Assembly (NCBI GenBank): GCA_021818445.1
Contig: JAKAEB010000016.1
Location: 1-64,000 of the forward strand
Direction: 5' to 3'
DNA from: Planctomycetota bacterium
GTDB taxonomy: Bacteria; Planctomycetota; Phycisphaerae; WQYP01
DNA: 64,000 nucleotides
The position numbers and the translations under genes are program-made. Within the stretch, counting starts at the first letter, position 1. Each line of letters starts with the position of its first letter. Under the pieces are notes generated by a model. It was not told where the DNA came from, made no database searches, and saw only the letters and a program-made list of their open reading frames with translations. This document shows, piece by piece, positions 4,396-55,206 of the stretch.

Positions 4396-5853
4396 TCAGA
4401 CCACTTGGTGCGTTTCAATTCCAAGAAGATGCCCGAGTTTTTCAATCTTAGCGCCCACATGGCCAATGCCCGCTGCGCAGTGGTGCGCCGGGCCGTGGGC
4501 GTTCCACGCCTCCATAAAATGTCTGACCCCACCGGGGACTTTGTAACGGCTGTTGGTGTTGCCAATTTCCAGTATTGGGCCAGGCACCGACTCGACGTGC
4601 GCATAGATGAGTTTTAATTTTCCACCGCCCGTCTGCACCACGGAGAGCAATGTAACCGGCCCATGTTTAACCGACATCTCCACCGATAAACCGCGCCCCA
4701 CCTTGCCGTGATACACCTGCAGGGGGCGCACCTTGGTTTTGCCCTGGGCAATGGCGATATGCCCCGGTCCGTCATGCCCCATCAACAATATATCATCATT
4801 AAAGTCGACACCGTAATATTCGGTAAATGATCCGCCGACACCCAGAGTGTCCATTATTTTCATGGCCTGGATATTGGCTATCTCCATCTCGCCGGCCACG
4901 GGGATTCCCCGGGCCGTCAGCAGCGAATTGCCCAGAATAATGGAGCTGATGGCGTCTTCATTTTCCGCACTGCCCGTGCCCATGTGGTAATATGCCATGG
5001 AACCAAGGCCATGCCGATCGACAAGTCGATCCAGTGCAAGGCTGGTGCGGGCTGCGCGGGCCAATTCGTGCGATGGGCAATCGGGTTGCACGTCAAAAAC
5101 GTCGTAGAAGTGCTGTACCCGTTGCTGAATGTCGGCATCGGAGATGGCGGCTCGCAGTGCGGCGAGTTCATCCACTTCAAGCATTTCAATATGTCCGCCA
5201 AATGTTCCCGCGTGCAGAGTCAGATCGCTGTAGATATCCAGCATGCCGCCGTAGTAGTGCCCCATCAGGCCAAGGCGGTTGTGCTCCAGCGTATGCGTCA
5301 CTTTTACGGCGTCCAGCCATTGATCAATTTGCGTCCAGACATGCGGATCATTTTCCAGCGTGCCGGTGATCTGGTGAAATGCGATGCCACAGCGATTAAA
5401 TACATTGGCAATTTCCGGCATCGGACAGGCCGAACACCAGGCCAGCCACTCGCCGGTCATCGCGGTCCGATCACGCGAGGCATTGAACCTGGCGTAATCC
5501 AGCGCCGCTCCGGGAGACAGATTCAACAATACCACCGGAACCCCCGCACGCCGCACCACTGGTAAAACCGTGGCGGACAGGGCGTAGGTTGTTACATACA
5601 AAAAGATGATGTCCACATCCGCCCGCCGAAATTCATGCCCTGCCTCCATCGCACGCTGCGGATGGTCCACGAGGCCCAGATTGACAAGTTCCACGTCCGG
5701 CCGTGCCAGCCGATTGGCCACCAACTGGATGTATGACTCCAGTCGGTCCTTGAGTCCTGCAAATTGCGGCCAGTAGGCGTCGAGTCCAATGCCGAAAAGA
5801 CCAATTCGGGGCAGGCTAAACGACCGATTTTCCGATGGGGTTGAAGATTTCAT
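4396..5853 (-). CDS. L-arabinose/L-fucose isomerase-like protein
   Basis: A 485-aa protein with the layout of the L-fucose/L-arabinose isomerase superfamily. An N-terminal Rossmann-like part begins LPRIGLFGIGLDAYWPQF. A middle part carries LGLMGHYYGGMLDIYSD, and a C-terminal part includes the conserved stretch GMEIANIQAMKIMDTL-like (here GEMEIANIQAMKIMDTLG) and GHDGPGHIA. These enzymes interconvert aldoses and ketoses with Mn2+. The true substrate is unknown, and family members in planctomycetes are often annotated only by similarity. The start at 5853 is supported by GAGG seven bases upstream; an outer start at 5898 adds 15 Arg/Leu-rich residues. It is divergent from infC. Confidence 0.7.
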   Translation of the reverse strand: MKSSTPSENRSFSLPRIGLFGIGLDAYWPQFAGLKDRLESYIQLVANRLARPDVELVNLGLVDHPQRAMEAGHEFRRADVDIIFLYVTTYALSATVLPVVRRAGVPVVLLNLSPGAALDYARFNASRDRTAMTGEWLAWCSACPMPEIANVFNRCGIAFHQITGTLENDPHVWTQIDQWLDAVKVTHTLEHNRLGLMGHYYGGMLDIYSDLTLHAGTFGGHIEMLEVDELAALRAAISDADIQQRVQHFYDVFDVQPDCPSHELARAARTSLALDRLVDRHGLGSMAYYHMGTGSAENEDAISSIILGNSLLTARGIPVAGEMEIANIQAMKIMDTLGVGGSFTEYYGVDFNDDILLMGHDGPGHIAIAQGKTKVRPLQVYHGKVGRGLSVEMSVKHGPVTLLSVVQTGGGKLKLIYAHVESVPGPILEIGNTNSRYKVPGGVRHFMEAWNAHGPAHHCAAGIGHVGAKIEKLGHLLGIETHQVV

Positions 5854-44754: not shown

Positions 44755-45087
44755 ATGGTCGCAATCTATGAAAAAACTCTGGCCTTCGGTGGTTCCAATG
44801 CAGACGTTTCGGCAACCCCATCCGGCACATCGCAGCTCTGCTATTACTTGGACAGACTCCTCGGTCGGTGGATGGAGCACAAGTATAACAATTCCGGCGC
44901 TAACCAGATCGTGAACGGTACCGTCCAACTGGGCCAAACGATTGCAAGTATCCCGGGCAACATCGCCTCTGCTGTGGAAAACGCGTGGTCTTACGCGGGC
45001 AGTTTATTTTCGGGGCCGACTAACCCTGCACCGGCCGCAGTGGAGGAACCAACCGCGCCTGATGATTTGATGCTTCCTGCGGAGTGA
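44755..45087 (+). CDS. Unknown 110-aa protein coupled to the WG-repeat gene
   Basis: A 110-codon ORF whose stop overlaps the GTG of the next gene (GTGA), which argues that both are translated together. The sequence has a predicted amphipathic helical middle (CYYLDRLLGRWMEHKYN; IASIPGNIASAVENAWSYAG) and a Pro/Ala/Glu acidic tail. No family, signal peptide or membrane helix is recognised. An in-frame stop lies eight codons upstream, so this is not the open end of a longer frame, yet it could be the remnant C-terminus of a larger protein. It sits in a repeat-rich region. Confidence 0.45.
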   Translation: MVAIYEKTLAFGGSNADVSATPSGTSQLCYYLDRLLGRWMEHKYNNSGANQIVNGTVQLGQTIASIPGNIASAVENAWSYAGSLFSGPTNPAPAAVEEPTAPDDLMLPAE

Positions 45088-46295
45088 CCGATCCTATGCG
45101 GCCCAAAAAAAAGAACGGCAGCCAGAGAGAAAGCTCGCGACCGGGCGCGAAGGTCGCGCCAGCGGACGACGAAACGGGTGCCAGCCTCATAGGGTGGTGG
45201 TTCCCATCCGGTAAAGGTGGCTTTGTCAACCGGCGCGGTGAGACGGTCATACCGCCCCGATTCGACCAGATATATCCGTTTGAGGATGGAATGGCGGCGG
45301 TGCAGGTTGGCGGGCGGTATGGAGTCATAGACGTTCACGGCACGTTTCTGCTGCCGCCGAAATTTGGGTTCCTCTCTTATTGCGGCAACGGTTTATGGTC
45401 CTTCGACGAGGCGGGTTTCCGAGGATTGATTTCATCGGACGGCGAGGTTTTAATTCCGCCCGTTTACCGAGTAATTGCCTGTTTCGTCGACGGCATCGGC
45501 AAAGCTCAGTCGCGCGACGGTAATTGGGGATTCATCAATGCCAGCGGGGAGCAGCTTTGCGAATTTTGCTACGACTTCACCGGAGAATTTAGCTGCGGTC
45601 TGGCGAAGGTGGAGGTAGGCCGATCGAACGGCTTTGTGGACAGAAACCTCAAAATAGCGGTTGGGCTTTCGAGGCGACGGTGGTTCTGGCCAAATTTCCA
45701 CCACGGGATGGTGGGGTTCCGCGAGGGGAAGCGGGTCGGGGTCATGGACACAAGCGGGCGGGTGGTTCTCGCGGCGCAGTACACGGATGCTGCGTGGACA
45801 TCGCGTGATCTGATTTGGGTGCGTGGCGAGCGACTATGGGGTGTCACGAATGGGAAAGGAGAGTTCGTGTTCGAGCCGCGGTACAGCCGCCGCCGGAACT
45901 TCACTGAGGGTCTGGCGTGGGTGCGTGTTGGTCGGCTATGGGGTGCCATCAATGTGAAGGGAGAATTTGCGTTTGAGCCAAAAATTGCATCCTGCAGGTT
46001 TTATGACGACACACGCAAGAGGTTTCTCAATGAGGCCCACACAAATCCCATGCCCTACCGTTGCGGCCTTGCGCGGGTCTCGGTCAGACGACAGGGAGAG
46101 TGCCGGCGCGGATTCGTGGACAAGAATGGAGAGTTCAGATTTCCGCCGGTGTTTTCGCATGCCAGCGATTTTGAGGGTGGCGTGGCCCGTGTGATTTTCC
46201 CAGGGCCCAAACGCAAGTGTTACGAAAGGGCCAACCTGATGAACATCGACGGTGAGATAATCATCGGCCCGGAAAAGGGGCGAGTGGTTGGGTAA
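45084..46295 (+). CDS. WG-repeat (WG beta-ribbon) protein
   Basis: A 403-aa protein built of about eight WG repeats, each following a pattern like WGxINxxGExxxxPxFxxxxxFxxGLAxV. Clear examples are GRYGVIDVHGTFLLPPKF, GNWGFINASGEQLCEF, ERLWGVTNGKGEFVFEP, GRLWGAINVKGEFAFEP and RRGFVDKNGEFRFPPVF. Such proteins act as binding scaffolds and appear near secretion and conflict systems; no catalytic domain is present. The start is either GTG 45084, overlapping the preceding stop, or ATG 45096. The N-terminus is very basic and polar (KKKNGSQRESSR). It is convergent with the FtsK-like gene, with 850 bp of repeats between. Confidence 0.8.
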   Translation: MTDPMRPKKKNGSQRESSRPGAKVAPADDETGASLIGWWFPSGKGGFVNRRGETVIPPRFDQIYPFEDGMAAVQVGGRYGVIDVHGTFLLPPKFGFLSYCGNGLWSFDEAGFRGLISSDGEVLIPPVYRVIACFVDGIGKAQSRDGNWGFINASGEQLCEFCYDFTGEFSCGLAKVEVGRSNGFVDRNLKIAVGLSRRRWFWPNFHHGMVGFREGKRVGVMDTSGRVVLAAQYTDAAWTSRDLIWVRGERLWGVTNGKGEFVFEPRYSRRRNFTEGLAWVRVGRLWGAINVKGEFAFEPKIASCRFYDDTRKRFLNEAHTNPMPYRCGLARVSVRRQGECRRGFVDKNGEFRFPPVFSHASDFEGGVARVIFPGPKRKCYERANLMNIDGEIIIGPEKGRVVG

Positions 46296-47147: not shown

Positions 47148-50100
47148 TCACGGCGTTTGTCCCGATTTAATGGCTTGCACTTCCTCCACCTTCGGCAACC
47201 CATAGGGGCGGAATTTTTCAATGGTCCCGTGCTCTTCGCTGCACATCAGCGCGCGATAAAAACCGAGCCGATTGGCGGCGACCGAATCAATGAGCGTGCT
47301 CGAATCAGCGGCGCTCATCTGGAATAATATGCGCTGATCAAATTCGCGGAGCATGGATCGGTCAAACGTGCGTTCAATTGACGCCATAGTATCCACCCAC
47401 GTCAGGACATGGATACCCACCGATGGGCCTTCGCGGATGATTTCCTGAAAGTCCTTGGCGGGATCGGCCTTCTTTTCTTCATCGGCGCTGCCGAGCGAAA
47501 AGCCAAAATCCGATTCAGATTTCCGCAGCATGCGAAAACGCTGAAGGCCATAGATCGCAAGGAAAATGGCCGGTGCGTCGGTTTTCTGATTTTTTTGCCG
47601 CTCGGAGAGTTCCGCATTGATGCCGGCAATGCAACTTTCTATATCGCGCCAGGCCGGTATCTGAATATCGCCGCCCATCATCGACGGCAGTTGCGTGAAA
47701 GCGCCGGCAAGGGGAGAACCCGCCGGCGCACCATCCAGCAGATAAAACGTGGCACCACCGTGGGGATATTGGGCACCCAGCGAGATCAGCATCCAGCTAA
47801 GTACGGCCAGAGCCTGCTCCTCCTGCTGCCCCACCAGCATGACATTGGCCCCACTTTGACGGCGCAGGGTAATCGACACCGGGTCTTTAATGGCAACCGG
47901 CTCGCCCACCCAGGCAAGCGGTTCCATGGGAATCGCATCCGGGGGTGCCGACGTAAGACGTGCCTTGAGCGCTGCATTGGTCTGAACGTCGGCCGGGGCG
48001 TTACCCTCAAAAACAATGGGTGATTGCAGCCGCCAATTCGCGTGCCCATTGCGGGCGGCTTGCAAGGCCCGCTGGCTGACGGCGTCAAGGTAATCATCGC
48101 GCTGCTCATCAGAAAGCCAGGCTACCTGAAATGGACTGTTGGCTTCAATAAGGCCGCCCGCATCGTTATAGATGGCGGCCCCAGGTCGAGAGAGCAGTTT
48201 GGCCGCCGAATTGTTGTCACCCAAAATTAGCTGGGAATCGGCATCGCTGACCTGCAGGGCGATACGCACGGCCATCTGCCCCAACGTGCTGCGGGCCAGA
48301 CCGGAGGTGCCGCCGACGGTTTGGGACCCCAGCAGCAGGTGCACACCAAAGGCGCGACCCTGCCGAACCAATCGATCCAGGAGCAAACCAGCCTGTTGGG
48401 CAAGCGCGTCATCTTCGGTGAAAAATTCCTGAAATTCGTCGATCACAAGCACGGTTCTGGGCATTGGCTTGCCGGTGGTGCGACGATAGGACGGCAGGTC
48501 CTGTACGCCCGCTTCGCGGAACAATTCTCCGCGGCGTGCCAGTTCCGCATCAAGACGTTCTAATACACTTAAACCAAATTCGCGATCGCTTTCAACGGCG
48601 ATAGCGCGGGCATGCGGCAAATGATGGGCCGCGTACGTTTTAAATTCCACACCTTTTTTGAAGTCGATGAGATAAAGTTCAACCTGGTCCGGCGCATACC
48701 ACATGGCCAGATTGGTAATCAGCACATGCAGCAGTGTTGACTTGCCAGAACCGGTTTTTCCGGCCAGCAGGGCATGTTGGGCCACATTTTTACCCAGACG
48801 GAGGGATTGCAAGCGCGTGGCCCCCATGCGACCGATGGAGACGGACAGATCGCCCGTGCTGTCGCCCGTCCACCATTGTGATTCGCCGGGGGCAATGGTT
48901 TCAAAAGGAACCTCGACATGCTGGCTGGCCTTGGCCGCCTTGCCCACTTTATCCAGCAGGGCTGTCATGGTCGATTCCGAGGGAGGGGTGTCAAGCGTAA
49001 GGGGGAATTTACCAAAGACCTCATCGCGCCATTGAAATCCTTCAGATGCCGGGGTGAGAACCACGCAATGCGGAAGCATTTTATCGATTGTGGTGGCCGC
49101 ATCGCCTGACTGCTGGCGTTCACAGGAAAGCAGCACATAAACACCGCAGCGGGCACCGGTCGCCGCGATAGCGTCAAGCCGCCGCAGGGCATCGGGCCCG
49201 AAACCCGAGGGAAAATCTGCAATGACCAGAAACCGGTACGGTTCCGCCAATTCGCCGGCCTGGGCGTTGTAGTCGTCGATTGTTGGAAATTCATTACGTA
49301 AATATTTTTGTATGACTGTTTCCATATGTTCAGTCATGTGCGAGAGGCGCTGCTCGATCTGATCCGGCTGTGTCCAGATACGGCCATTGACGAGGGCGTC
49401 ATCATAATCCGCCAGGCGCATAAACCCGGCAAAACTCTGCCCCAGCCCGACTGGATCAATAAGTGTGAACCGGGCGCGACCGGGCGGAAGACAGGTGAGG
49501 ATACGCAAAATAACCACCCGAAGAAATTCAATCGCCTCCCGACGACCGCCGCGTTCATGAAGCACCGCCAGAGAGGCACCATGCGGAAAGGCCAGTGATG
49601 CCGGTACGGTGAATTCTGGCGGAAACTGCAATTGCACCTGCACATCGGGCGAATCGGAATCAACAATTTGCTTCAGGTTGACGTTCAATCGACCAAACGG
49701 CATCAGATCGGGAAAATCCAAAGGTGCCTGCCAATGGCTCCAATCCGAACTGCCATCCGCAGCGAGTTCGGTGGAACCCGGATTGACGATGGTCGGGGCC
49801 TTAATTTGAGCCAGCCCCGTTTTCAGCCGGTTTTCGAGGTCATTCCAGGCCGATTGACGTTTGGCCTCATTGGCCGCGTTATCCTGCTCGAATTGCCGCT
49901 GGAGGGATTCCATTTCGGTGTGATGCGTCCGCTGAAGTTCGTCTGTTTCGGCGGCGGCCGTGTTGGTTTGCGATTCCATCCGGGCGGCCTTTTCGGTGTC
50001 GGCGAGGGAAATGGCGCGGTCTAATTCCGCCTGGGCAGCGGACAGGCGTGCATTGCGTTTCTCCTGCAATGACTTGATTGTCTGGAGCGTGCGTTGCTTG

Positions 50101-51110
50101 AGACGATCCAATTCAGCCTGACCTTTGTGCCGGGCGGCTTCATAGGCGGATTGAATTTCAGCGCGTTGGGCGTCGGCAAATACCTGCGATGCGGCATGGC
50201 TTTTAGAAAGAGCCTCAATAACCGGAAGCGACGCCATAAAAAGCTGCTTCCTGGCGGAGCGCCGAAGCAGGATGTAACCGATAATTTCCACGACGACCGC
50301 CACCCCAACCGCAATGCCAACGGCTTTTATGTGAATGGTGGAACCGCCCTTCACGAGTTGCGTCACCACTCCCGCCGCACCGCAAAGCGCGAGGCTGAAA
50401 ATAAAGGGCAAAATTCCGGCCATGAAATTGGGAAGCGCCAATTTGCCGATGGACTGTAATTGTTTTTCGGCACTGGCAAGCTCATCAATCATGATTTTCT
50501 GTGCCGCAACGCCGGGGGCAATTTGCGGCTTGGCTTTATCCGGTTCAAGGCCGGGGGGAACCAGGGAATATCGGGAAATCACCTGGGCGGTTTTCTTGAA
50601 GGCATTTTCGATCGCCTCAAGGTGGGTCGCGAGGTCTTTTTTCAGCGATTCTTTTTGCTGCAGCGCACGATTGTGGGCCGCGTCCAGGCCTGTTTCGATA
50701 AGCAGTTTCGCCTCATCATGGCTGGATTTGGTATTTTTTTCCGCGGCAGAGTAATCCCATTGAATGCCTGTGCAAACCTGCTTGTGCTGGCTTTTAAGCC
50801 CATTGATCTGCTTTTCGTGAAGCCGCTCAATGGTATTAAGGTCGGCCTGATGCTTCAGCTTTAGTTCTTCCGATCGGGCGTGAAACTGAGCCTCGGCAGC
50901 CGTCTTTGTGCTGGCGAATTTATCGGCAAGTGTATCGCGAGCGCGGGTAAAGGCTTCAAAAATTTCTGCCTCACGCCGTGCACACTCAGATGCCAGTGAT
51001 ATTAAATCACGCAGCGCATCGCGCTGTAAATCCAATGGTGCCCGGTTGGTGCTGGCAGGGGCGGGAACTGAAGTTGTATCCGGCTGTGATTGGTCGGCTA
51101 ACTGCTGCAT
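47148..51110 (-). CDS. FtsK/SpoIIIE-type (EssC/EccC-like) membrane ATPase
   Basis: A 1320-aa protein resembling the motor of type VII secretion. Its N-terminal part (about 30-200) is charged and coiled-coil-like. Two membrane helices follow (about 226-250 and 262-280), then a second coiled-coil stretch (about 290-460). Three FtsK/SpoIIIE modules come next: a first without Walker motifs (about 530-690), a second with intact Walker A AGKTGSGKST (about 783-791) and Walker B VLVIDEF (about 890), and a third whose P-loop is degenerate (LVGQQEEQAL, about 1093). The ATG at 51110 follows AAAGG closely; an outer start at 51173 runs nearer the upstream gene. It is last in a four-gene unit with two WXG100-like genes. 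No FHA domains are visible. Confidence 0.85.
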   Translation of the reverse strand: MQQLADQSQPDTTSVPAPASTNRAPLDLQRDALRDLISLASECARREAEIFEAFTRARDTLADKFASTKTAAEAQFHARSEELKLKHQADLNTIERLHEKQINGLKSQHKQVCTGIQWDYSAAEKNTKSSHDEAKLLIETGLDAAHNRALQQKESLKKDLATHLEAIENAFKKTAQVISRYSLVPPGLEPDKAKPQIAPGVAAQKIMIDELASAEKQLQSIGKLALPNFMAGILPFIFSLALCGAAGVVTQLVKGGSTIHIKAVGIAVGVAVVVEIIGYILLRRSARKQLFMASLPVIEALSKSHAASQVFADAQRAEIQSAYEAARHKGQAELDRLKQRTLQTIKSLQEKRNARLSAAQAELDRAISLADTEKAARMESQTNTAAAETDELQRTHHTEMESLQRQFEQDNAANEAKRQSAWNDLENRLKTGLAQIKAPTIVNPGSTELAADGSSDWSHWQAPLDFPDLMPFGRLNVNLKQIVDSDSPDVQVQLQFPPEFTVPASLAFPHGASLAVLHERGGRREAIEFLRVVILRILTCLPPGRARFTLIDPVGLGQSFAGFMRLADYDDALVNGRIWTQPDQIEQRLSHMTEHMETVIQKYLRNEFPTIDDYNAQAGELAEPYRFLVIADFPSGFGPDALRRLDAIAATGARCGVYVLLSCERQQSGDAATTIDKMLPHCVVLTPASEGFQWRDEVFGKFPLTLDTPPSESTMTALLDKVGKAAKASQHVEVPFETIAPGESQWWTGDSTGDLSVSIGRMGATRLQSLRLGKNVAQHALLAGKTGSGKSTLLHVLITNLAMWYAPDQVELYLIDFKKGVEFKTYAAHHLPHARAIAVESDREFGLSVLERLDAELARRGELFREAGVQDLPSYRRTTGKPMPRTVLVIDEFQEFFTEDDALAQQAGLLLDRLVRQGRAFGVHLLLGSQTVGGTSGLARSTLGQMAVRIALQVSDADSQLILGDNNSAAKLLSRPGAAIYNDAGGLIEANSPFQVAWLSDEQRDDYLDAVSQRALQAARNGHANWRLQSPIVFEGNAPADVQTNAALKARLTSAPPDAIPMEPLAWVGEPVAIKDPVSITLRRQSGANVMLVGQQEEQALAVLSWMLISLGAQYPHGGATFYLLDGAPAGSPLAGAFTQLPSMMGGDIQIPAWRDIESCIAGINAELSERQKNQKTDAPAIFLAIYGLQRFRMLRKSESDFGFSLGSADEEKKADPAKDFQEIIREGPSVGIHVLTWVDTMASIERTFDRSMLREFDQRILFQMSAADSSTLIDSVAANRLGFYRALMCSEEHGTIEKFRPYGLPKVEEVQAIKSGQTP

Positions 51111-51144
51111 ATTACCTTTATACCAGCAAAATTGACTTACGGCT

Positions 51145-51357
51145 TTATTCGCAATCTCGTTTGACGTTGGCAAGCACTACCGCCATATGATCGATGGCGA
51201 GAGCCGCACCGCGAACATCCGCCTCAAGCGGATCCAAAAAGGATTCCTGAAAGCGGTCGCTGGCCGCATCATTCCAACCGGAATGAATCTGCATCCATCG
51301 GGTTTGAAGCATCTTGTAAGCTTTGATTAACCGCCCTTGGCTTTCATGCACGCCCAT
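51145..51357 (-). CDS. WXG100-like protein, short form (70 aa)
   Basis: A 70-aa protein with two predicted helices around a W-x-D turn, in WMQIHSGWNDAASDRFQESF, the position of the WXG turn in ESAT-6/EsxA proteins, and a helical C-terminal half ending DHMAVVLANVKRDCE. It is shorter than the usual ~100 aa. GGGAG lies seven bases before the ATG. It is 34 bp upstream of the FtsK-like ATPase gene, the usual neighbour of T7SS substrates. Confidence 0.65.
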   Translation of the reverse strand: MGVHESQGRLIKAYKMLQTRWMQIHSGWNDAASDRFQESFLDPLEADVRGAALAIDHMAVVLANVKRDCE

Positions 51358-51432
51358 GAAGGTTCTCCCAAGATAACTAACACTTTTGAAACCGCCTGCT
51401 GCGGGGTTTACCCCACCACACTGCGGCGGAAG

Positions 51433-52410
51433 TCACGTCGGTTCTTTAGCCATATGCACAACAGCGCCGTCCTTTACCCTAACGCGGAAACCGACGGGAA
51501 GTCTCAAAATTAGTTCCCATTTTTCCATCTCGGCGGCATTGGCTGCCAGCAAATCCAGCGGAGCCTTGCCGCAGGAGCGGTGGTCGGGATGATTCTGCAG
51601 AAGAACCCAGCCGCTGTCGTCGGTATCTGCCGCCGCAAGGCGCAGTAAAGTGTACATGGGCGGATTTTCCACCACATCGGGGCAGCAGATTATGGTGTGC
51701 CGGATGTCAACGGGTGTTGAATCGGTACTGGATACCACATCTAAAAATTCCGCGGATATTGTCGGGCAAGCTAACTGGATGGATGAAATATGTCGGGCGT
51801 TTCGTCGCTCCTCGACACCGGGTGGATCAAGCGAGGCGGAGATGGCGGTGGTGAGCAATTCGCCACGGTTGGCAAAGTTACTACCGGCCGAGTCGCTGGC
51901 GGAAATATTGGCATCGGCCGGTGACACGTCCAAATTAACGTAGGCCTCCAACGAGACCATCATGCGATCGAGCTGGTGGACGGCCGCAGGAACCAACGAC
52001 TCTACACTGTGCGACAGGCGTCCAACGGAACCTTTATAGAGTTCGATTTCTTTTTGCAAGGCTCGCGCCCACTTGCGGACATTGGCGAATTTTTCTTCAG
52101 CCTCGGCCATGCGTTGCATGGCGATTTTCAGGGCCTTTTGCTCCTCGACCACGGATTGAGGGCGGCCGGAGGCATCCTTAAATATTTTTTTACTGCGGAG
52201 GGCTTCCTTGGCGCGTTCAAGCGCTTCGTGCCGGATGCGCAGTTGACTTTTCCAGTAGCTGTCCTGTTCGGTTTCCAGCCAGATTACGGTGCGGCGAAGC
52301 TCAGACTCCACATCATCCAGCGACCCGACACACGCTTCCCGAAACTTCCACAATACGCCTTGCAGCTCCCGGAGCAGTTCCAGAGACTGAACATTTGCGC
52401 CTTGTGGCAT
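51433..52410 (-). CDS. Coiled-coil protein of the WXG100/FtsK unit
   Basis: A 325-aa protein between the two WXG100-like genes. The N-terminal ~140 residues are helical and highly charged (RHEALERAKEALRSKK; QRMAEAEEKFANVRKWARAL). A Ser/Ala-rich middle follows, then a beta-rich C-terminal half with HTIICCPDVVENPPM and LPVGFRVRVKDGAVV. The helical start recalls LXG-type or EspB-like T7SS substrates, but no toxin motif is visible. ATG at 52410; a TTG two codons earlier is possible. It begins 10 bp after the first WXG100-like gene. Family unknown. Confidence 0.65.
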   Translation of the reverse strand: MPQGANVQSLELLRELQGVLWKFREACVGSLDDVESELRRTVIWLETEQDSYWKSQLRIRHEALERAKEALRSKKIFKDASGRPQSVVEEQKALKIAMQRMAEAEEKFANVRKWARALQKEIELYKGSVGRLSHSVESLVPAAVHQLDRMMVSLEAYVNLDVSPADANISASDSAGSNFANRGELLTTAISASLDPPGVEERRNARHISSIQLACPTISAEFLDVVSSTDSTPVDIRHTIICCPDVVENPPMYTLLRLAAADTDDSGWVLLQNHPDHRSCGKAPLDLLAANAAEMEKWELILRLPVGFRVRVKDGAVVHMAKEPT

Positions 52411-52420
52411 GGTCAATAAC

Positions 52421-52693
52421 CTACCGTTCGCTGAGATACTTTTCGATCAACTGCGCCTTTTTCATCAGCACCTTCGCATGCTGACTGGATGCCTCCAGAA
52501 AAACTGACAGTGCCTTGGCGGTCTGATCAAATTCTTCGGCAAACTTTTTCTGTTCCTGATCGCGCCATGTGGTCTCCAGAGAACGCATCCTGGCGCTCAG
52601 ACCGGCCATTAAGGTTTGCAAGTCGTTGTTGAACTGATTAAGCCCCTGCGCAAATCGCCGTAGCTCTGATGGGTCAACACTCGCCTTACCCAT
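52421..52693 (-). CDS. WXG100-like protein (90 aa)
   Basis: A 90-aa helical hairpin protein with ESAT-6/EsxA features: helix SELRRFAQGLNQFNNDLQTL, turn ETTWRDQEQKKF (W-R-D in place of W-x-G), helix FDQTAKALSVFLEASSQHAKVL, and no signal peptide. Such proteins are exported as dimers by T7SS or act as chaperones for bigger substrates. GAGGT lies five bases before the ATG. It is first in the unit, next to a tandem 18-bp repeat and the sod gene. Confidence 0.78.
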   Translation of the reverse strand: MGKASVDPSELRRFAQGLNQFNNDLQTLMAGLSARMRSLETTWRDQEQKKFAEEFDQTAKALSVFLEASSQHAKVLMKKAQLIEKYLSER

Positions 52694-52706: not shown

Positions 52707-52742
52707 ATTGCCGGGATACACCGCATTGCCGGGATACACCGC
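52707..52742. repeat. Perfect tandem 18-bp repeat
   Basis: Two exact head-to-tail copies of ATTGCCGGGATACACCGC in the gap between the sod stop and the WXG100-like start, within 15-50 bp of the latter. They could be a paired regulator site for the WXG100/FtsK unit or simple slippage. Confidence 0.7.
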
Positions 52743-53565: not shown

Positions 53566-55206
53566 CTATTTGCTGAGATTGTAATTTACAATCATGGATC
53601 CATGACCGAGGCTGACGCTGTTGGCCTGGCCAATCTTCACCGAGGCGGCCTTGCTCCAAACAAACATGTGCGACGAATGTACGCTCCAAATAATGATCTG
53701 CCAATTACCGGGAGCGATGCGAATGGTCTTGGATGAGCCCGGCATAATTTTAATCTTTACCGGTTCCTGCGCGTCGAGCAGAGGGATAATCTGGTTATTG
53801 AAATAATGTCGCAACCGCGCGAGTGATCGGCTGGTGTTGGTACTTACCTGGCTGTTTAAGAATAGTTGCAATATCTCCCACCAAGGCTCCTCATGCGAAT
53901 TGCCGTTGGCGATTAGCTGATTTCCCATGCTGCGCCACTGGCCGGCCTCGGCCGCCGTTGGACTTCCGACTGTGTGGGCGGCGGCATCGGACCATGGTGG
54001 TCTGCTGTTGCTGATAGCGCGGCTGATGACACCCAGGCGTTTGTAAGCCGCCTGCACCAAGCCTCCCACCTTGATCATGCGTATCTGTGCGGGCACGGCG
54101 ACGCCAGTTAGCATGCCAAGCTTGGCATTCGCCTCCACGGTAATTGTTAACTTGGAATTTTCATACGCCAGCTTCGGATAGTCGTGCATGGGCAGCGCCG
54201 CCAGAGTTTTTGCAACACCAGCACCGGCGATCAAACCACGCGCGGTACCCTTTAATTCAATGAAATAGGGCTTTTGCGAAGGTTTCAGAGCGAATATCCA
54301 ATTTTGAATCACCACTCGATGGCCACCCACATGCCGATAGTCGTCAACCACGGCGGAATTAAACGTGAGTTTTTGGAACAGTGCACCATCCCGCAGAAAC
54401 CCTACCGGGTAATATTGGCGACCTTCCGTGGTAACCAATCGCACTTCCGATGGCGTCAGGCGGAAGTAGCCAGAGTCAGATGATATCGCCGGCTGTTTAG
54501 AACCGTGATTCACCTGTGTGCGGACCACAAGGATCTTCTTGCCAGGCATCGGTGGAATATGAAACAGCGACGCCTTGTTATTGGGGATAGTTCCCGCCGC
54601 CAGCACCTTGAGCAGTTCAGGCGATAGCGTTTTGCGGCCAGCATACTGAACGGTATAGCGCAGGCCGTAGAGTTCCTTAAGAAAATGCGGATGGATCATG
54701 GCGAATGCCGGGGAGCCTCCCATGGAGTTTCCGCTGGTCATGTCCCAGATGGATTCAACAAAGCCATCGGGATCAAACCAGATGGATGAAGAACTTCTCG
54801 CCAGACCATTGGGATAACGGTTGAATCCCGCGATGGAGGCGGTAAGCGGAAGCATTTGCGTACCGATCAGAACGGTTCCAATGACGACCAAACCGACAAA
54901 AAAGCCGATAACGCCGGATGTAATTTTGGCCGGCAGCGGGGGCAATTCGATATCATCGCGCACGAGAAAGTCGAAGATGGTGCGGGTGAGGGTAAGCAGG
55001 ACGAAAAAGGTGAGCAAAAACGCCGCACCCCGGGCCATGTCCGGCCACTTGCCGAAGAACTTCGCGACCGCCTCAAAGGTGCCCATGGCGACAATGGAGG
55101 AAATCAGACTGCAAAACAGCAGGATGACGGCGGAGAAGGGCCCCTCGTTGACGAGGAGGAAGGTGATAAGGCCCAGAAATAACAATACAATAATATCAAT
55201 AATCAT
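53566..55206 (-). CDS. CvpA-like membrane domain fused to a large periplasmic domain
   Basis: A 546-aa protein. The first ~140 residues hold four hydrophobic helices with CvpA-family character (MIIDIIVLLFLGLITFLLV; AAFLLTFFVLLTLTRTIFDF; GVIGFFVGLVVIGTVLIGTQ). CvpA is linked to colicin V production and envelope stability. The remaining ~400 residues are mostly beta-rich and presumably periplasmic (GKKILVVRTQVN; VGGHRVVIQNWIFALKPS), without a family I know. The gene follows the GspE-like pseudo-ATPase by 23 bp and so probably belongs to the same transcript. Confidence 0.68.
   Translation of the reverse strand: MIIDIIVLLFLGLITFLLVNEGPFSAVILLFCSLISSIVAMGTFEAVAKFFGKWPDMARGAAFLLTFFVLLTLTRTIFDFLVRDDIELPPLPAKITSGVIGFFVGLVVIGTVLIGTQMLPLTASIAGFNRYPNGLARSSSSIWFDPDGFVESIWDMTSGNSMGGSPAFAMIHPHFLKELYGLRYTVQYAGRKTLSPELLKVLAAGTIPNNKASLFHIPPMPGKKILVVRTQVNHGSKQPAISSDSGYFRLTPSEVRLVTTEGRQYYPVGFLRDGALFQKLTFNSAVVDDYRHVGGHRVVIQNWIFALKPSQKPYFIELKGTARGLIAGAGVAKTLAALPMHDYPKLAYENSKLTITVEANAKLGMLTGVAVPAQIRMIKVGGLVQAAYKRLGVISRAISNSRPPWSDAAAHTVGSPTAAEAGQWRSMGNQLIANGNSHEEPWWEILQLFLNSQVSTNTSRSLARLRHYFNNQIIPLLDAQEPVKIKIMPGSSKTIRIAPGNWQIIIWSVHSSHMFVWSKAASVKIGQANSVSLGHGSMIVNYNLSK

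What the first reader, a model, noticed from the sequence alone, without database searches (positions are those of the whole stretch)
47148..52693. Minimal type VII-like secretion unit: WXG100 - coiled coil - WXG100 - FtsK/EssC ATPase
Four minus-strand genes with gaps of 10-75 bp encode two small WXG100-like helical-hairpin proteins, one charged helical protein, and a membrane-anchored triple-module FtsK/SpoIIIE ATPase. WXG100 proteins plus an EssC/EccC-like ATPase define T7SS, but no EssA/EssB/EsaA or EccB/EccD/EccE/mycosin homologue is encoded nearby. In a Gram-negative (diderm) background this suggests either a stripped-down export system using unknown partners, or a different DNA- or protein-translocation role.
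Basis: partly seen in the sequence, partly recalled or inferred. Interest (0 to 1): 0.85.

Follow-up and report, generated by a model that had tools for sequence, protein, structure and literature searches.

The report
Four-part WXG100–ATPase machine of planctomycetes
Next to each other in a planctomycete genome sit three helical-hairpin proteins and a membrane ATPase related to the motor of type VII protein secretion; the same four parts are inherited together across the Planctomycetota–Verrucomicrobiota group, even where their genes have drifted to four different places on the chromosome, so they almost certainly form one machine, although what it moves has not been shown by anyone.

Summary
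[quoted passage not shown] The 90-aa protein is a true WXG100 member, closest to Helicobacter HP0062; the 70-aa protein is its divergent homologue; the helical protein is modelled as a ~70+70-residue hairpin plus an Imm33-like domain. ATPase sequence and model match EccC/EssC best, and the genome has a separate FtsK. Gene order is kept in 58 of 64 testable loci from Planctomycetota, Verrucomicrobiota and Lentisphaerota. In 294 planctomycete genomes the ATPase and the 90-aa gene co-occur 38:1:2:253, even where all four genes lie apart. The ATPase tree follows taxonomy.

It is not a canonical T7SS: no YukD or LXG in the genome, one WXG100 protein, no conserved neighbour. The kind is already on record: a 2012 footnote, the H. 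pylori 'WXG100 secretion system', and a 2024 CoCoNuT-linked module whose coiled-coil protein carries a nuclease. This is the chromosomal, membrane-anchored, toxin-free variant. Most likely an inner-membrane motor works on a fixed hairpin complex, probably exporting the long hairpin; export is inferred, not shown.

The parts
52421..52693 (-). w90: 90-aa WXG100 protein with a W-R-D bend motif (HP0062 type)
   Evidence: PF06013 1.8e-9 above cut-off; HP0062 3fx7 4.6e-14 with profile A1; 63% mean column identity over 36 homologues, W43/D45/E47/Y86/L87 invariant; only WXG100 hit in the genome
51433..52410 (-). cc: 325-aa protein, residues 8-160 one long antiparallel helical hairpin, linker 161-197, residues 198-325 an alpha/beta Imm33-like domain; proposed carrier or cargo of the motor
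   Evidence: AF2 model pLDDT 88; homologues in 90 of 107 loci; PF24719 Imm33-like in 8 of 39 aligned homologues, best 5.6e-11, not detected in this protein alone; no significant PDB fold match
51145..51357 (-). w70: 70-aa short WXG-like hairpin, W28-x-D30 invariant, near-invariant C-terminal Cys
   Evidence: TIGR03930 0.011 alone; profile-profile with w90 E 6.9e-6, P 84.5; alignment A2; Cys within the last 8 residues in 76 of 88
47148..51110 (-). ATPase (1320 aa): coiled coil - two hydrophobic TM segments - coiled coil - three FtsK/HerA-type modules, only the middle one with an intact Walker A
   Evidence: PF01580 8.2e-33; EccCa TIGR03924 6.6e-35 vs FtsK 1.3e-5; Foldseek EccC 4nh0 8.6e-27 vs FtsK 1.6e-10; TM and Walker scan; AF2 model
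48738..48761 (-). The only intact Walker A of the ATPase (GKTGSGKS, residues 784-791, middle module)
   Evidence: Motif scan, inside the PF01580 match
52707..52740 (-). Two tandem copies of GGTGTATCCCGGCAAT (18-bp period) 14-47 bp upstream of the w90 start; possible regulatory site, untested
   Evidence: Two exact copies; 3 matches in the window with up to 2 mismatches against 0.04 expected

Best explanation
A four-part inner-membrane motor complex, distantly related to the type VII secretion motor and ancestral or nearly so in the Planctomycetota-Verrucomicrobiota-Lentisphaerota group. The ATPase (two TM segments; modules degenerate - active - degenerate) is expected to act as a hexamer. A fixed set of three helical hairpins serves it: w90 (HP0062-type WXG100), w70 (short divergent WXG homologue) and cc (very long hairpin, here with an Imm33-like tail domain). 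Most likely steps: w90 and w70 pack against the cc hairpin into a helical bundle (inferred from EsxAB and Lap-LXG complexes); the bundle docks on the ATPase (inferred); ATP hydrolysis in the middle module drives cc across the cytoplasmic membrane or onto its periplasmic face (inferred). In mobile relatives the same cc slot carries a nuclease followed by an immunity gene, which marks cc as the carried subunit. Shown: the parts, their homologies, their conserved order and obligate co-retention, vertical inheritance. Not shown: complex formation, translocation, substrate, direction. Confidence that the four form one machine: about 0.95. Confidence in protein translocation of cc: about 0.45.
For: One machine: order kept in 58/64 loci; co-occurrence of ATPase and w90 in 294 genomes is 38 both, 1 ATPase only, 2 w90 only, 253 neither, with all 22 positive high-quality genomes concordant; in 61 relatives 25/1/2/33. 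Where the operon is broken, single copies of w90, w70 and cc persist elsewhere: 10 of 10 high-quality genomes; complete genome G160 has all four at separate loci. Vertical: tree follows phylum and family; no viral copies. T7-like. cc as carrier: L114 has w90 - helical protein with a WHH/colicin-DNase nuclease - SMI1/KNR4 immunity - 77-aa - FtsK; L112 has w90 - coiled coil with a further C-terminal domain - 113-aa - 76-aa - FtsK (PMC11090510 describes this arrangement with a D-ExK nuclease). Protein rather than DNA substrate: an Hsp70-DnaJ/TPR-GrpE set next to the ATPase in L113 and a DnaK homologue in the H. pylori cluster.
Against: No secretion data for any member. w90 is more conserved (51% between distant loci) than the ATPase as a whole (40%), which fits a permanent machine part better than a secreted effector. 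No outer-membrane route and no membrane partner is linked. The CoCoNuT-linked relatives have no TM segments (L111 and L112 here), so membrane export is not universal in the wider family. The cc C-terminal domain here resembles an immunity-type fold, not a toxin. Most PVC cc proteins have no folded cargo at all.
Confidence: 0.5

Rival explanations
1. A non-secretory protein machine: the membrane-tethered ATPase remodels or polymerises the three hairpin proteins on the inner face of the membrane (stress, envelope or defence response); the hairpins are permanent subunits or adaptors, never exported.
For: w90 is the second most conserved piece after the motor module; single copy and no extra WXG100 or LXG substrates in the genome; toxin-free cc in most members; the 2024 authors argue for a different mechanism in TM-less relatives.
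Against: ATPase architecture is closest to a secretion motor and has TM segments; mobile relatives put a nuclease with an immunity gene in the cc slot, which suggests delivery to other cells.
Confidence: 0.3
2. An anti-phage or anti-plasmid defence unit (chromosomal cousin of the CoCoNuT / TerY-P-linked module).
For: Closest described relatives lie in TerY-P and CoCoNuT defence loci; patchy presence (39 of 294 planctomycete genomes); weak PADLOC ATPase hits to SspH and mad8.
Against: No defence gene is conserved around the PVC loci; no nuclease domain; co-retention when dispersed and vertical inheritance are unlike defence islands; PADLOC hits cover only the generic FtsK motor.
Confidence: 0.15
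3. A DNA translocase or chromosome-segregation motor.
For: Middle module belongs to FtsK_SpoIIIE; EccC and FtsK share a branch apart from this family.
Against: The genome has its own FtsK (871 aa, 213.7 bits); the ATPase scores far lower to FtsK than to EccC/EssC models and by fold; constant WXG100 partners have no role in known DNA translocases.
Confidence: 0.05

Closest known systems
[quoted passage not shown]
   Same: ATPase architecture, WXG100 partner, and lineages: planctomycetes and verrucomicrobia are named. The footnote covers this system.
   Different: The footnote calls them 'mobile versions of T7SS'; the PVC form here is chromosomal, mostly vertical and kept when dispersed. The second hairpin and the coiled-coil protein are not mentioned there.
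EssC-like module of Type III-A CoCoNuTs (PMC11090510)
   Same: Two WXG100 proteins, one without WxG; coiled-coil protein; three-module ATPase with only the central one active; N-terminal coiled coil.
   Different: There the ATPase lacks TM segments, the coiled-coil protein carries a D-ExK nuclease, and the module is flanked by VWA genes. Here: TM-anchored, no nuclease, no VWA or TerY-P.
H. pylori 'WXG100 secretion system' with HP0062 and HP0066 (PMC4978471; HP0062 structure 3fx7, PMC3397514)
   Same: HP0062 is the nearest solved relative of w90 (4.6e-14) and shares the W-R-D bend; linked FtsK/SpoIIIE ATPase.
   Different: The H. pylori cluster includes an HNH/ENDO VII nuclease and a DnaK homologue; neither is in the window unit.
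T7SSa/b (ESX, Ess) and T7SSc-j of Gram-positives (PMC11217815)
   Same: WXG100 protein plus EccC/EssC-type ATPase.
   Different: No EsaB/YukD-type protein in the genome, no linked membrane partners or LXG substrates; one catalytic module only, no third C-terminal domain.
Lap1-Lap2-LXG pre-secretion complexes of T7SSb (PMC10765036)
   Same: Two small hairpins encoded with one long helical targeting protein.
   Different: No LXG homology found; no toxin domain here; the analogy is by layout, not by sequence.

Membership tests
Type VII secretion system | WXG100 protein | tested here: met
   w90 above the PF06013 cut-off; EsxB/EsxA among PDB matches
Type VII secretion system | EccC/EssC-type membrane ATPase | tested here: inconclusive
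   Best matches are EccC/EssC by profile and fold and TM segments are present, but scores are far below the equivalog cut-offs, the last ATPase domain is missing, only one module has Walker A, and the domain tree does not place it with EccC
Type VII secretion system | EsaB/YukD ubiquitin-like component | tested here: not met
   No PF08817 hit in the genome at E <= 0.1; control B. subtilis positive; genome 94% complete
Type VII secretion system | Other membrane partners (EssA/EssB/EsaA or EccB/EccD/EccE/mycosin) | tested here: inconclusive
   No conserved flanking gene family in about 100 loci; not searched family by family across the genome
Type VII secretion system | LXG or further WXG100 substrates | tested here: not met
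   PF04740 none; PF06013 only w90
Type VII secretion system | ATPase-dependent secretion of the WXG100 protein | not testable with these tools
   needs experiment
Gram-negative WXG100 / three-module FtsK unit (PMC3482391, PMC11090510) | Three modules, only the middle active | tested here: met
   Single Walker A in all 13 PVC ATPases scanned; module layout in the AF2 model
Gram-negative WXG100 / three-module FtsK unit (PMC3482391, PMC11090510) | Two WXG100-type hairpins, one lacking WxG, plus a coiled-coil protein | tested here: met
CoCoNuT-linked module in particular | Nuclease fused to the coiled coil, flanking VWA genes, TM-less ATPase | tested here: not met
   cc carries an Imm33-like domain or only a tail; no conserved VWA neighbours; TM segments present
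Gram-negative WXG100 / three-module FtsK unit (PMC3482391) | Mobile | tested here: not met
   Tree follows taxonomy; none in viral contigs; parts kept at dispersed chromosomal loci
FtsK/SpoIIIE chromosome translocase | Is the genome's FtsK | tested here: not met
   Separate 871-aa FtsK at G000:C43 scoring 213.7 vs 97.8 bits

The most novel reading that the evidence does not exclude
A PVC-wide, vertically inherited four-component machine that shares ancestry with the type VII motor but is not a toxin-delivery system: a dedicated membrane motor with an obligate, fixed three-hairpin complex and no separate membrane channel subunits, so the minimal form of T7-type translocation, or a distinct non-secretory use of it, in diderm bacteria.
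Probability: 0.35. Interest if true: 0.75.

Novelty: new variant of a known kind. Interest (0 to 1): 0.52.

Why it matters
Type VII secretion is studied almost only in Gram-positives, and how WXG100 hairpins and their ATPase work without the phylum-specific membrane partners is open. A four-gene unit that stays complete in diderm planctomycetes and verrucomicrobia even when its genes are scattered is a natural minimal set: if it translocates protein, the ATPase and hairpins alone suffice; if it does not, WXG100/EccC-type machines have a second, non-secretory role. The toxin-bearing mobile relatives also suggest how a housekeeping machine and an antagonism or defence module are connected.

Tried and rejected
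Chance or mis-called ORFs: rejected by recurrence with constant lengths and order. Chromosomal FtsK: rejected. Mobile element or virus-borne unit in this lineage: no viral relatives, tree vertical; plasmid relatives are only 28-34% identical. Hidden partner genes near the unit: all-against-all comparison of flanks found no family in more than 9 loci, and none at a fixed position apart from close relatives. P0003 C-terminus as an ADP-ribosyltransferase-like toxin: an early guess from one strand; the alignment and Pfam point to Imm33-like instead. cc as a direct sequence homologue of w90: only P 3.9, E 0.011, so left open. cc against PDB folds: only generic coiled coils. Domain tree to place the ATPase relative to EccC and FtsK: long branches, inconclusive. 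Anantharaman et al. 2012 could not be read; Sutcliffe 2011 is known here only through citation.
Full report
WHAT IS THERE. The window is contig 97 of a 3.7-Mb, 124-contig, 94%-complete genome; its nearest named relatives are Phycisphaerae. On the minus strand, in transcription order: w90 (52693-52421, 90 aa), cc (52410-51433, 325 aa), w70 (51357-51145, 70 aa), ATPase (51110-47148, 1320 aa). The ATG at 51110 matches the N-terminus and the 1320-aa length of the closest relative, L030.

PARTS. w90 is a WXG100 protein (PF06013 1.8e-9) and the only one found in the genome. With a profile of 36 homologues its best solved relative is Helicobacter HP0062 (4.6e-14), followed by EsxB and EsxA. Its bend motif is W-[RQ]-D, as in HP0062 (WRD, PMC3397514). 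It is almost always exactly 90 aa and ends in -YLxxR. w70 alone matches WXG100 only weakly. Its profile aligns with that of w90 on the W-x-D motif (E 6.9e-6, P 84.5), and iterative HMM searches merge the two families. A Cys sits within the last eight residues in 76 of 88 homologues; w90 has almost none (1 of 88). cc has a conserved core of about 165 aa. AlphaFold2 gives two antiparallel helices, 8-76 and 88-160, then a disordered linker and a folded domain 198-325 (pLDDT 88). Foldseek finds only generic coiled coils. In 8 of 39 homologues the extra domain is recognised as Pfam Imm33-like (best 5.6e-11; not in P0003 itself). Most PVC homologues end instead in a hydrophilic tail.

ATPASE. Two hydrophobic segments lie between two long coiled-coil stretches. 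Three modules follow and only the middle one has Walker A (GKTGSGKS in the window), in all 13 PVC members scanned. Profile scores: EccCa 6.6e-35, EssC 3.8e-31, FtsK 1.3e-5. The folded model matches EccC 4nh0 at 8.6e-27 and FtsK motors at 1.6e-10. The genome has its own FtsK elsewhere. A tree of the active domain did not place the family with EccC: EccC joined FtsK/SpoIIIE/TcpA (98/98), apart from the PVC and plasmid ATPases, but long branches make this unsure. So 'EccC/EssC-like' is a statement of similarity and layout, not of clade.

CONSERVATION. 107 loci with a relative of the ATPase were examined; 92 hold w90/w70 genes and 90 hold cc. Of 64 loci with enough upstream sequence, 58 have the complete order. 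Two of the six exceptions are the same frame-shifted locus seen twice, two lack one hairpin gene, and two have a lone ATPase. cc and w70 overlap in 50 of 88 loci, and the median w90-cc gap is 12.5 bp. No flanking gene family is shared by more than 9 loci, so the unit is self-contained. Between distant loci, mean identity is 69% for the active module, 51% for w90, 40% for the whole ATPase, 29% for w70 and cc, and 16% for the coiled-coil/TM part.

CO-RETENTION. This is the strongest new evidence. In 61 relatives: 25 genomes have ATPase and w90, 1 has ATPase only, 2 have w90 only, 33 have neither. In 294 genomes across the phylum: 38, 1, 2 and 253, with the three odd ones being incomplete bins and 22 of 22 positive high-quality genomes concordant (Fisher p 3e-44; relatedness is not corrected for, so the p-value overstates independence). 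In ten high-quality genomes where the ATPase is not next to the full set, one w90, one w70 (the weaker second hits there are the w90 genes) and one cc persist elsewhere. In the complete genome G160 the four genes lie at 0.23, 0.71, 1.94 and 2.66 Mb; in G083 the ATPase is at 5.92, w90 at 2.50 and cc+w70 at 4.30 Mb. Genes that are scattered yet kept as single copies together very probably depend on one another. The ATPase tree follows phylum and family (5 label changes against a minimum of 4), and no relative was found in viral contigs. Inheritance is thus mainly vertical, with many losses.

MOBILE COUSINS. Plasmids hold only distant relatives (28-34%), but these are telling. Helicobacter sp. 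NHP19-012 (L114): 89-aa WXG protein, a 340-aa helical protein ending in a WHH/colicin-type nuclease, an SMI1/KNR4 immunity protein, a 77-aa protein, then the ATPase. Caballeronia (L112): VWA, WXG100, 436-aa coiled coil with a further C-terminal domain (no Pfam hit), 113 aa, 76 aa, ATPase, Card1-like CARF protein, VWA, PP2C, kinase; this is the arrangement described with Type III-A CoCoNuTs. Rhodococcus pseudokoreensis (L113): Hsp70, DnaJ/TPR and GrpE genes in front of the ATPase. The H. pylori cluster likewise includes a DnaK homologue. The cc slot is thus where cargo sits, by gene position (sequence homology of these long proteins to cc is weak), and dedicated chaperones point to protein as the substrate.

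MECHANISM. Best reading: w90, w70 and cc form a helical bundle that docks on a membrane ATPase, whose middle module powers movement of cc across or onto the far side of the inner membrane. Steps shown: identity, homology, co-retention, vertical descent. Steps inferred: complex formation, docking, hexamer, direction, export. The main rival is a non-secretory machine in which the hairpins are permanent subunits; the high conservation of w90 and the lack of toxins favour it, and current data cannot exclude it.

WHAT IS KNOWN. Zhang et al. 2012 (PMC3482391, Table 1 footnote 6) already record solo WXG domains with a three-module ATPase, only the middle one active, in planctomycetes, verrucomicrobia and others, as 'mobile versions of T7SS'. 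A 2023 review says such Gram-negative units have not been confirmed as secretion systems (PMC10765036). The T7SSc-j survey covers Gram-positives only (PMC11217815). H. pylori HP0062/HP0066 and the CoCoNuT module are described. New here: the full four-part composition in PVC bacteria, the TM anchor, the toxin-free cc with an Imm33-like domain, and the co-retention and vertical pattern, which argues against 'mobile' for this lineage. I found no paper on these points in the library searched.

LIMITS. Most relatives are metagenome bins; the Proteobacteria and Cyanobacteria hits (L067, L097, L105) may be mis-binned. The ATPase model lacks the first 120 residues and has pLDDT 78. TM segments come from hydropathy. 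The other T7SS membrane components were not searched genome-wide one by one.

Noticed in passing
window 52707-52740: Two tandem copies of GGTGTATCCCGGCAAT with an 18-bp period just upstream of w90, with a third near-copy at 4702-4717; possible operator.
   Followed up: partly
window 45084-46295: 403-aa WG-repeat protein (PF14903, 9e-52) on the opposite strand just beyond the unit; not conserved next to the unit in relatives.
   Followed up: no
window 53566-55206: 546-aa protein with a CvpA-like (colicin V production) membrane domain at the N-terminus, weak Pfam match, between a superoxide dismutase and a T2SSE-type ATPase gene.
   Followed up: no
L113 5418-8624: Hsp70, DnaJ/TPR and GrpE genes directly in front of a three-module ATPase on a Rhodococcus plasmid; a dedicated chaperone set for this motor family.
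   Followed up: partly
L114 7189-8600: Helicobacter plasmid gene with a helical N-terminus and a WHH/colicin-type nuclease end, followed by an SMI1/KNR4 immunity gene, inside a WXG100-ATPase unit.
   Followed up: partly
L112 5555-20205: Caballeronia plasmid locus with VWA, WXG100, coiled-coil protein, ATPase, Card1-like CARF protein, PP2C and kinase: looks like a Type III-A CoCoNuT extension on a plasmid.
   Followed up: partly
w70 alignment A2 (window 51145-51357): Nearly invariant Cys at the very C-terminus of w70 ([DE]C[ESQG]) with practically no Cys in w90; role unknown (disulfide, metal or lipid attachment are untested ideas).
   Followed up: no
G162:C1 7874000-7892000 (L158, L215): A shorter ATPase (1008-aa frame) with w90 but no detectable cc in a 9.5-Mb single-contig genome; possible reduced variant.
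   Followed up: no
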